DNA from: Candidatus Nitrosopumilus sp.
Lineage (GTDB): Archaea; Thermoproteota; Nitrososphaeria; Nitrososphaerales; Nitrosopumilaceae
DNA length: 57,507 nt
Direction of reading: 5' to 3'
NCBI RefSeq assembly: GCF_029882185.1
Contig: NZ_JAOULD010000007.1
Span: forward strand, 1-57,507
Position numbers and translations under genes: made by a program. Positions 40,083 through 43,623 of the stretch are shown here, in pieces. Within the stretch, counting starts at the first letter, position 1, and the number at the start of each line of letters is the position of its first letter. The notes below the pieces were generated by a model. That model worked only from the letters and a program-made list of their open reading frames with translations, was not told where the DNA came from and ran no database searches.

Positions 40083-42110
40083 GTGGTAAAAAATCATCTT
40101 GCGTCTGAAACAAGTCCATATCTCCTTCAGCATGTAAACAATCCTGTTGATTGGTATGGTTGGAATGAGGAATCATTAAAAAAAGCAAAAGATGAAAACA
40201 AGCCAATCTTTCTTAGTGTTGGATATAGTTCATGTCATTGGTGCCATGTCATGGCTCATGAGTCGTTTGAAAATCAAGATGTTGCTGAATTTATGAATGC
40301 AAATTTCATTAATATCAAAGTTGATCGAGAAGAACGACCTGACATTGATGACATATATCAAAAAGTCTGTCAGATTGCAACAGGTCAAGGAGGTTGGCCT
40401 TTGAGTGTTTTTCTTACTCCTGATCAAAAACCATTCTATGTTGGAACTTATTTCCCAGTTCTGGATTCTTATGGACGTCCAGGGTTTGGAAGTATTTGCA
40501 GACAACTCTCCCAAGCTTGGAAAGAAAAACCTAAAGATATTGAAAAATCTGCCGAAAAATTTCTTGGCGCATTAGATAAAGCCGAAACGATTCAAATTCC
40601 ATCAAAATTAGAAAGGGTTATTCTTGATGAGGCTGCAATGAATCTATTTCAATTGGGAGATGCAACATATGGTGGATTCGGTTCTGCTCCAAAATTTCCA
40701 AATGTTGCAAATGTTTCTTTTCTTTTTAGATATGCAAAACTTACTGGATTAACCAAATTCGCCGAATTTGCGCTCAAAACCCTCAAAAAAATGGCAAATG
40801 GGGGAATATTTGATCAAATTGGAGGTGGTTTTTCTAGATATTCTACTGATGCAAAATGGCTAGTTCCACATTTTGAAAAAATGCTTTATGATAATGCTTT
40901 GATTCCAGTAAACTATGTTGAGGCATTTCAAATTACAAAAGATCCTTTTTACCTTGAAGTTTTACAAAAAACTCTAGATTTCGTTTTACGTGAAATGACT
41001 TCTCCTGAGGGTGGGTTTTATTCTGCATATGATGCTGATTCTGAAGGTGTTGAAGGGAAATACTATGTATGGAAGAAAAGTGAGATCAAAGAAATTCTTG
41101 GGGATGATGCTGATTTGTTCTGCCTATACTATGATGTAACTGATGGTGGAAATTGGGAGGGAAATAATGTCTTGTGTAATAATCTGAACATATCTACAGT
41201 TGCTTTTAATTTTGGGCTTTCTGAAACTGAGGTTAAAAAAATAATTAATTTATGTTCTGAAAAATTATTAAAAGCTCGTTTTTCTAGGATTCCTCCTGGA
41301 TTAGATGACAAAATTTTAGTTTCTTGGAATTCTTTAATGATCACTGCGTTTGCAAAAGGTTATCGTGTTACAGGCGATATGCGATATCTAAACGCTGCAA
41401 AAAACTGTATTTCTTTTATTGAAAACAATTTACTTTCTGATGATAAATTATTACGAACATACAAAAACAAAACTGCAAAAATTGATGGATATTTAGAAGA
41501 TTATTCTTATTTTATCAATGCATTACTTGATGTGTTTGAAGTTGAACCTGATGAAAAATATCTGCAACTGTCTTTGAAATTAGGTCATCATTTAGTTAAT
41601 CATTTCTGGGATTCTGAAAATAACAGTTTCTTTATGACTTCTGATGATCATGAAAAATTGATTATTCGTCCAAAGAGTAACTATGATTTGTCTTTACCTT
41701 CTGGAAATTCTGTATCTGCTTTTGTCATGCTTAGATTGTATCACCTGTCACAAGACCATGCTTTTCTGAAAATTGCTACGAAAATTATGGAATCTCAGGC
41801 ACAAATGGCTGCAGAAAATCCCTTTGGCTTTGGGTATTTGCTAAATACAATTCTAATGTACGTTGAAAAACCTACTGAAATCACCCTCATTAACACTGAA
41901 AATTCCAAAATATGCGAATCACTTCTTTTGGATTATTTGCCAAATTCTATTTTAATAACTATTCATAATGCTTCACAATTGGAGAATCTTTCAAAATATC
42001 CTTTCTTTGCAGGAAAATCTTTTGAAGACAAAACAACTGTTTTTGTTTGTAAGGATTTTGCTTGTTCTTTACCCCTTTACACTCTTGATGAAATTCAATC
42101 AAATCTTTAG
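40083..42110 (+). CDS. Thioredoxin-domain protein, YyaL/SPATA20 family (DUF255)
   Basis: The 675-residue protein begins with GTG 40083 and the family opening [21 protein letters not shown]. The thioredoxin-like domain has CHWC (C51, C54) in [15 protein letters not shown]. An (alpha/alpha)6-barrel C-terminal part follows, with [35 protein letters not shown] and [10 protein letters not shown]. The family is widespread but its activity is not settled; a redox-linked hydrolase or epimerase role is inferred from the fold. Full length for the family. The stop overlaps the convergent gene by four bases. Confidence 0.92.
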
Positions 42111-42427
42111 TTCTTTTTTAAATCCACTTCGATGATATTTCCGACTTGTGGTCTTCCCATGTTGTCATATCTTGACTTTGGCATTGCAATTGTGATCTGA
42201 GTCTGCTGATATGATTTGATATTTACTGTTGGCTGTGCTTGTAAAATTGCTTCTAATAATGGCATTACTTGCTCTTTAGTTTCTGAATCTAGTTTTTTTG
42301 AAACGTTCTCAATTATCATCTGTTTTTGAGATATTGGCTCAGTTGAAATATTTTCAATCAAAGTTAATTGAACCATCTGACCGTTATCTACTATTTGTGT
42401 AATTTTAAATTCATTTGTGTCTGGCAT
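42107..42427 (-). CDS. Hypothetical acid-rich protein
   Basis: The frame starts with TTG 42484, but ATG 42427 ([20 protein letters not shown]) is preferred because the TTG lies inside the upstream microprotein gene that ends at 42459. The 106-residue protein has a beta-strand start, a helical part ([25 protein letters not shown]) and a strand-rich close ([20 protein letters not shown]). No family recognised. The microprotein upstream is likely in the same transcript. Confidence 0.65.
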
Positions 42428-42458
42428 GTGAAATGATCTGTTTCCTGATGATTTATCT

Positions 42459-42551
42459 TTAACGAATTGAAAAATACAATGCAACTACTGCTGTGACTAC
42501 TGCTGCAGATACTCCTAACCCAAAGATTATTTTGCTTCCATCCACTTTCAT
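42459..42551 (-). CDS. 30-residue one-helix membrane microprotein
   Basis: ATG 42551 reads MKVDGSKIIFGLGVSAAVVT then AVVALYFSIR and ends at TAA 42459-42461. A short basic head, a glycine- and alanine-rich membrane helix and a terminal arginine are typical of a bitopic microprotein. It lies directly upstream of the hypothetical gene at 42107-42427, and its end makes the ATG at 42427 the natural next start. Confidence 0.55.
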   Translation of the reverse strand: MKVDGSKIIFGLGVSAAVVTAVVALYFSIR

Positions 42552-42660
42552 AATTTTTACTAAAAATAGTTGGAATTAAACCCTGCTGATTTTCTTCATT
42601 TTTAAAATTTATTCACTGATGATTTCTACGTAAGTGTTTTAATAGAAAATTTGCTATGTC

Positions 42661-42749
42661 TATTATCGCATACTAACTGTATTCATACACCTGCGATAGT
42701 ACCGCGTCCAACAGGAGTCATAAAGAGTGTCCATTTGGGCACTCTTTTT
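42661..42749 (+). ncRNA. Structured RNA candidate with terminator-like 3' hairpin
   Basis: TATTATCGCA (42661-42670) can pair with TGCGATAGTA (42692-42701), one G-T wobble, making a 10-bp stem. After a 20-base linker, AAAGAGTGTCC (42722-42732) pairs with GGGCACTCTTT (42737-42747) over a four-base loop and runs into T residues. A TATA-like TTTTAATAG at 42637-42645 is placed about 20 bases before the first stem. The whole looks like a short independent plus-strand RNA. No coding frame fits. The 3' hairpin could instead serve the convergent minus-strand gene that ends at 42748. Confidence 0.5.
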
Positions 42750-43089
42750 AATTAAAATCACTGTCTGTCTGATTTTCATGCTCTTCTTCTTTCTTATGTG
42801 TCTCTGGTTTTGGAGGATCAAGGATAGCTTTTTTGATTAATGCCGCACGCTCTTTTATTATCTGATTAAATTCTCTCATGTCGTCTAGCCCTGGTGTCTG
42901 TTGTTGATTTTGATATGCTTGTAAAAATCCAGAATATACACATCCTGTGATTATTCCAAATGCTGTATCTGGAACTGATTCTATTTCAGGAACAAAGTTT
43001 TCTGCTATTTGCTTGTAAGATTCTGATTCATTAATGTAATAGTCTACTAGGCTGTCTATGAAATCTCTATTTTCCTTTGAAATTGCCAT
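42748..43089 (-). CDS. Hypothetical protein
   Basis: The 113-residue soluble protein has helices in the N-terminal half (AISKENRDFIDSLVDYYINES) and a middle PDTAFGIITGCVYSGFLQAYQNQ. The Lys/Glu-rich C-terminal tail (PPKPETHKKEEEHENQT) looks disordered. ATG start at 43089. No family recognised. Its stop abuts the RNA-like hairpin at 42722-42747. Confidence 0.6.
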   Translation of the reverse strand: MAISKENRDFIDSLVDYYINESESYKQIAENFVPEIESVPDTAFGIITGCVYSGFLQAYQNQQQTPGLDDMREFNQIIKERAALIKKAILDPPKPETHKKEEEHENQTDSDFN

Positions 43090-43161
43090 CTGTTTTTTCT
43101 TAATTTCCTAGTTTATTTAATTGTCTTTGATTAATCGTTTATTTATTCATAAATCGGTTTG

Positions 43162-43623
43162 ATGGTGTTGTGGAAATTAGAATCAGATGAAGGTTTTTTT
43201 CGAATATATGATTCAAAAAAACTCATTGCAGGATATTTTGATCCTGATTATGGAGATGTTTTCTCAAAAGATAACTCTGAAGAAATTATTTCGTCTATGA
43301 TAAAAAATCATGAAAAGATCTCAGGTGGACTCTTGATGATTCCCTGTGTAAAATTTCGATTATTTGATACTGATTTGGATACCTCTTTGGAAAATGTAGA
43401 AGCGCAAGTACTACGGGTGAATGCTCATTTACAAAAATGGAAGAATTTCCTATCTGAAACTAATCGTCAATCTCATTCGATCCGAATATCCCATACTGAT
43501 CAGGACATGTTAACCATCACATTTCCAATAGTTTTTTCAAAACCCACTCCTCTTGAAAAATTATCCTTACTTGAGGAACTTTTCGAAACTTTGGAATTGT
43601 TGCAAAAATCTAGTTTGCTGTGA
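43162..43623 (+). CDS. Hypothetical protein
   Basis: The frame opens with TTG 43159, but ATG 43162 is taken. The 153-residue soluble protein begins VLWKLESDEGFFRIYDSKKLIAGYF. It has beta strands with a helical C-terminus (TPLEKLSLLEELFETLELLQKS). The N-terminal half, with DPDYGDVFSKDNSEEI, has no recognised family. There is no signal peptide. Confidence 0.65.
   Translation: MVLWKLESDEGFFRIYDSKKLIAGYFDPDYGDVFSKDNSEEIISSMIKNHEKISGGLLMIPCVKFRLFDTDLDTSLENVEAQVLRVNAHLQKWKNFLSETNRQSHSIRISHTDQDMLTITFPIVFSKPTPLEKLSLLEELFETLELLQKSSLL

What the first reader, a model, noticed from the sequence alone, without database searches (positions are those of the whole stretch)
42661..42749. Two-hairpin RNA candidate ending in a terminator-like stem
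A 10-bp stem (one wobble), a 20-base linker, then an 11-bp stem with a 4-base loop and T run, with a TATA-like box at a suitable distance. The pattern of promoter, stem, linker, terminator looks like an independent short RNA, and no ORF explains it. Alternatively the last hairpin terminates the minus-strand gene at 42748.
Basis: seen in the sequence. Interest (0 to 1): 0.65.

Follow-up and report, generated by a model that had tools for sequence, protein, structure and literature searches.

The report
Conserved small RNA gene in Nitrosopumilus
A short gene in marine ammonia-oxidizing archaea appears to make an ~85-base regulatory RNA with its own promoter, which is shared with a handful of other genes; the RNA matches no catalogued family, and what it controls is not yet known.

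Summary
The two hairpins are real and much more stable than chance (z -4.6). The element is conserved at the same chromosomal position in about 30 Nitrosopumilus and Nitrosarchaeum species, and all 30 covariance-model loci inspected lie between the same two genes. The pattern is that of an independent small RNA: promoter 93% identical, spacer 51%, RNA 62-89%, following sequence 47%, third codon positions of the neighbour 65%. The stems keep pairing through compensatory changes, there is no conserved ORF, and no Rfam family matches. The hairpin goes with the RNA, not with the convergent gene: 53 of 55 relatives that keep the gene but lack the RNA have no hairpin there. New here: the promoter carries CTGATRATTTCTACG, which recurs 50 times in 33 of 95 congeneric genomes (reversed control: 0). 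At 14 of 14 coding sites examined the start codon lies exactly 49-50 bases from its first base. The same element precedes small zinc-finger proteins, secreted proteins, a TrmB-like regulator and a second hairpin RNA, which suggests a regulon. Transcription, targets and regulator are untested. Most likely a trans-acting sRNA: a new family of a known kind.

The parts
42616..42631 (+). upstream promoter element CTGATGATTTCTACGT (probable activator site, -49 to -34 from the predicted start)
   Evidence: part of the most conserved block of the locus; 15-base core occurs 50 times in 33 of 95 genus genomes against 0 for the reversed pattern; fixed 49-50 bases before leaderless start codons at other loci
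42631..42644 (+). BRE-like TAAGTG and TATA box TTTTAATA (-28 to -21)
   Evidence: segment 42614-42648 is 93.5% identical among 19 species, spacer after it 50.6%
42665..42749 (+). predicted small RNA, about 85 nt, start at A42665
   Evidence: synteny in 30 of 30 loci inspected, covariance model, fixed start distance
42665..42697 (+). 5' hairpin: AUCGCA (42665-42670) with UGCGAU (42692-42697), plus small apical stem UGUA/UACA (42678-42681 with 42686-42689), loop UUCA
   Evidence: 97% of cells paired for the six pairs, 81% for the four pairs upstream of the predicted start; apical stem has three pairs with double changes
42698..42721 (+). single-stranded conserved linker containing GUCCAACAGGAGUCA
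   Evidence: 42702-42721 is 81% identical although it has no supported helix
42722..42749 (+). 3' hairpin (42722-42732 with 42737-42747) and T run 42745-42749, probable transcript end
   Evidence: 95% of cells paired, five pairs with changes on both sides

Best explanation
The locus is an independent small-RNA gene of Nitrosopumilaceae. An activator is thought to bind CTGATGATTTCTACGT next to the BRE/TATA, and RNA polymerase starts at A42665 and stops after the U-tract at the 3' hairpin near 42749. The product is a ~85-nt RNA capped at each end by a hairpin, with a conserved single-stranded linker (CCAACAGGAGUCA) between. The most likely role is a trans-acting regulator that uses the linker to pair with mRNAs or to bind a protein, made together with the other genes that carry the same promoter element. 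Shown by sequence: conservation, structure, synteny, and the promoter element with its fixed distance. Inferred: transcription, the activator, and trans action. Roughly 0.85 that it is a transcribed non-coding RNA, roughly 0.5 that it acts by base pairing.
For: Folding z -4.6. About 30 species with the RNA at the same place. Segment conservation: promoter .935, spacer .506, stem arms .74-.89, linker .81, downstream .466; neighbour third codon positions .647. Covariation in the independent MAFFT alignment: 91.5% of cells paired, 14 double-change cells against 4.9 in shuffles, 0 of 500 as high; slid controls 30-54% paired. No conserved ORF. Hairpin absent from 53 of 55 RNA-less gaps. No Rfam family at gathering score. 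Promoter element 50 sites against 0 in the control, with start codons at +49/+50 in 14 of 14 coding cases examined.
Against: No transcript evidence was available. No convincing target: complements of the linker fall inside coding sequences, not at translation starts. Stem 1 itself is nearly invariant, so covariation speaks mainly for the 3' hairpin and the apical stem. In a divergent group (L012, L014, L021, L123, L211, L231) stem 1 is replaced by a different 5' hairpin. The RNA has been lost repeatedly (about 10 changes on the tree), so it is dispensable in many lineages. The T run is missing in Nitrosarchaeum.
Confidence: 0.62

Rival explanations
1. The 3' hairpin is only a transcription terminator or mRNA 3'-end protector for the convergent minus-strand gene 42748-43089, and stem 1 is incidental.
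For: The hairpin starts right after that gene's stop codon, and hairpins are nearly palindromic, so it could act on both strands.
Against: 53 of 55 relatives that keep the gene but lack the RNA have no hairpin there. The T run follows the hairpin on the + strand; on the - strand only two or three T follow it. It does not explain the 93.5% conserved + strand promoter.
Confidence: 0.08
2. The RNA acts by binding a protein (for example an RNA polymerase, Sm-like or RNA-modification factor) rather than by pairing with mRNAs.
For: Linker sequence and UUCA apical loop are conserved, and no conserved mRNA target was found near start codons.
Against: No known protein-binding RNA family matches; no box C/D pair, H/ACA box or kink-turn was recognised by eye.
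Confidence: 0.25
3. The transcript is a 5' leader or cis-regulatory element, or an antisense RNA, of an adjacent gene.
For: The + strand gene 43159-43623 lies downstream and the minus-strand gene 42748-43089 overlaps any read-through.
Against: The next + strand gene is about 400 bases away behind the 3' hairpin, T run and an opposing gene. The RNA is lost repeatedly while both neighbours stay.
Confidence: 0.08

Closest known systems
Archaeal intergenic trans-acting sRNAs (as reviewed in PMC3432209, e.g. Methanosarcina mazei, Haloferax volcanii)
   Same: short intergenic transcript unit with its own BRE/TATA promoter, hairpins, 3' U-tract and a conserved unpaired segment
   Different: sequence family unrelated to any Rfam 15 model at gathering score; restricted to Nitrosopumilus and Nitrosarchaeum in the genomes searched; no target or transcript known
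Tan1, an abundant orphan ncRNA of marine group II Euryarchaeota (PMC5069720)
   Same: structured, lineage-restricted orphan ncRNA of marine archaea with unknown function
   Different: Tan1 is 229 nt and was found from transcripts in Thalassoarchaea; this one is ~85 nt, thaumarchaeal, and known only from comparative genomics
Archaeal U-tract termination with aCPSF1 (PMC8716108)
   Same: the T run at 42745-42749 fits a U-tract end signal, and a thaumarchaeal aCPSF1 ortholog works with such tracts
   Different: archaeal terminators mostly need no hairpin, so the conserved hairpin is more likely part of the RNA than a bacterial-type terminator

Membership tests
Independent intergenic archaeal sRNA | own promoter in an intergenic gap, on the strand of the RNA | tested here: met
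   BRE/TATA block 93.5% identical, followed by a 51% spacer
Independent intergenic archaeal sRNA | structure conserved with compensatory changes | tested here: met
   0 of 500 shuffles reach the paired percentage or the covariation score
Independent intergenic archaeal sRNA | no conserved open reading frame | tested here: met
   longest ORFs 0-28 aa, in differing strands and frames
Independent intergenic archaeal sRNA | a transcript of the expected size | not testable with these tools
   no RNA data held
Independent intergenic archaeal sRNA | mRNA target or protein partner | tested here: inconclusive
   linker complements in 12 genomes lie inside coding regions only, among the sites inspected
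Any Rfam 15 family (SRP RNA, RNase P RNA, C/D and H/ACA sRNA, riboswitches) | match at or above the gathering score | tested here: not met
   no match at the locus; best sub-threshold hits MicX 19.7 of 75 bits and mir-968 21.2 of 88
Bacterial-type intrinsic terminator of the minus-strand gene | GC-rich hairpin followed by a T run on the strand of the gene, kept with the gene | tested here: not met
   T run is on the + strand; hairpin absent in 53 of 55 RNA-less relatives that keep the gene

The most novel reading that the evidence does not exclude
The RNA belongs to a previously undescribed regulon of ammonia-oxidizing archaea, defined by an activator site CTGATRATTTCTACG at exactly -49/-50 from the start of leaderless mRNAs. 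It comprises at least two non-coding RNAs (this one and the AAUAGAUAGGAUGGAGG hairpin RNA), tiny zinc-finger proteins, secreted proteins and, in one species, a TrmB-like regulator.
Probability: 0.5. Interest if true: 0.72.

Novelty: new member of a known kind. Interest (0 to 1): 0.56.

Why it matters
My searches of the open-access literature found no described regulatory RNA of Nitrosopumilus, although these archaea are among the most abundant ammonia oxidizers in the sea. A single-copy, syntenic RNA with a predicted 5' end to the base and a distinctive promoter element gives a concrete entry point. It also points to a small set of co-regulated genes, including a second putative RNA, and hence to an activator that could be identified. 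The repeated losses offer natural knock-outs for comparison.

Tried and rejected
Rfam at gathering and relaxed thresholds: no credible family. A middle hairpin in the linker (GAC..GUC, UCC..GGA), suggested by single-sequence folds, shows no covariation and is broken in the window itself. Antisense targets of the linker: hits in 12 genomes at up to 3 mismatches; those inspected lie inside coding regions such as a transaldolase-like gene, not at starts. A coding reading, including short ORFs on both strands, is not conserved. Box C/D sRNA (TGATGA at 42617): it lies upstream of the TATA box and is TGATAA in a third of homologues, and no box D partner was seen. Cas12a-like repeat resemblance of ATTTCTAC: I judged it coincidence, since the element sits at a fixed distance before genes. 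Bacterial sigma-70 and terminator scans were uninformative, with counts equal to shuffles. Literature searches found no report of this RNA or motif; subscription papers were not searchable.

Full report
What is there. Window 42661-42749 holds the two stems as described, with TATA-like TTTTAATA at 42637-42644. The + strand folds at -29 kcal/mol, z -4.6; the minus strand is weaker at z -2.9. The window is from a Nitrosopumilus-type genome: its relatives carry names such as Nitrosopumilus and Nitrosarchaeum.

Conservation. The gene next to the hairpin (42748-43089, minus strand, no Pfam family) found 80 syntenic loci. In about 25 of them the gap holds the same promoter and RNA. A promoter weight matrix separates carriers from the rest, at 18-58 bits for carriers against under 10. 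A covariance model built from 23 sequences finds single-copy matches in about 27 of 250 family genomes. These fall in 2 of 22 genera, and a sample of 300 genomes of the order adds none outside them. All 30 loci inspected are flanked by the same two genes. The model misses a divergent group (L012, L014, L021, L022, L088, L211, L231) that has the same promoter and layout but a different 5' hairpin, so the count is a lower bound. On a tree of neighbouring proteins the RNA occurs in several clades, including Nitrosarchaeum, and needs about 10 changes. A mostly open-ocean clade lacks it throughout, and L034, L047 and L071 carry what look like relics. I read this as an old RNA lost repeatedly.

Selection acts on promoter and RNA. 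Mean pairwise identity in 19 species is: upstream .54, promoter .935, spacer .51, stem-1 arms .89 and .885, apical part .75, linker .81, 3' hairpin arms .74 and .875, after the hairpin .47. Third codon positions of the neighbouring gene give .65.

Structure. In the MAFFT alignment, which was not fitted to a structure, 91.5% of cells pair. Nine pairs have double changes and there are 14 double-change cells; shuffles give 4.2 and 4.9. Slid controls pair 30-54%. Examples in the 3' hairpin are GAGUGUCC/GGGCACUC, GGGUGCCC/GGGCACCC and GAAUGCCC/GGGCAUUC. A model-fitted alignment gives the same picture more strongly, but it leans towards the structure and includes a few reverse-strand rows. The middle hairpin of some folds is not supported.

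The hairpin belongs to the RNA. Of 55 loci scored as lacking the RNA but keeping the gene, 53 have no hairpin within 60 bases of its stop codon. The T run is on the RNA's strand. In Nitrosarchaeum copies the hairpin stays while the T run is short or missing. In archaea U-tracts, not hairpins, are the main termination signal (PMC8716108), so the hairpin is probably a stability or function element as well.

The promoter element. The whole 22-mer TTTCTACGTAAGTGTTTTAATA is unique in the genome at up to 3 mismatches. Its upstream part is not. CTGATRATTTCTACG occurs exactly 50 times in 33 of 95 genus genomes, and the reversed pattern 0 times. Outside this RNA, at coding loci with up to 2 mismatches, the start codon lies 49 or 50 bases from the first base of the motif in all 14 cases examined. 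These are a 278-aa secreted protein, other secreted proteins, tiny CxxC zinc-finger proteins and a TrmB-like regulator (Pfam E 8.8e-12). Other 2-mismatch sites have no gene at that distance and may be chance. A start codon at a constant distance from a promoter element is what leaderless mRNAs would give, so the distance measures the transcription start. Applied here it gives A42665 (A at +49), and the same offset lands on a corresponding A in nearly every homologue examined (L069 is the exception). The four outer pairs of stem 1 would then not be transcribed; they pair in 81% of cells against 97% for the six inner ones.

A second RNA. At about ten sites the element precedes AATAGATAGGATGGAGGCTTTT...ACCTYACACCATCTATT, which begins at about +50 and folds into one long hairpin. 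It has no Rfam match. A relative is in the window's own genome on contig 58.

Mechanism. Shown: promoter, structure, conservation, element and its distance. Inferred: an activator recognises the element; the ~85-nt RNA acts in trans through its exposed linker. A target search gave only coding-internal complements among the sites inspected, so protein binding is a live alternative.

Novelty. No Rfam family, and no paper found, describes it. It is a new family of a known kind, orphan archaeal sRNAs. The possible regulon is the more novel part.

Noticed in passing
L173 1551-1600 and homologues (L179, L193, L203, L208, L221, L227, L228, L230); own genome G000:C58:22217-22236 (L235): Second putative hairpin RNA AAUAGAUAGGAUGGAGGCUUUU...ACCUYACACCAUCUAUU, starting about 50 bases after the same promoter element; no Rfam match.
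   Followed up: partly
G000:C58:3132 (L178), G000:C38:749 (L184), L219, L224: Leaderless ORFs for 38-42 aa CxxC...CxxC zinc-finger-like proteins directly behind the CTGATRATTTCTACG element; no Pfam family for the one tested.
   Followed up: partly
L174, L176, L223, L226 and G000:C92:4066 (L190): About 278-aa protein with a signal-peptide-like start, leaderless, with the same element at -50; no Pfam family.
   Followed up: partly
window 42461-42553, minus strand: Unlisted ~30-aa membrane-like ORF (MKVDGSKIIFGLGVSAAVVTAVVALYFSIR) ahead of the 42107-42484 ORF, with similar start and TATA sequence visible in most syntenic loci.
   Followed up: no
L029 3330-3488: Tandem duplication of the 5' hairpin loop segment (CTGTATTCACATACCTG twice) within one homologue of the RNA.
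   Followed up: no
L196, L205, L218: Sites where the element is followed about 50 bases later by a second, partly matching copy (GATAATTTCTAC or similar); unexplained.
   Followed up: no
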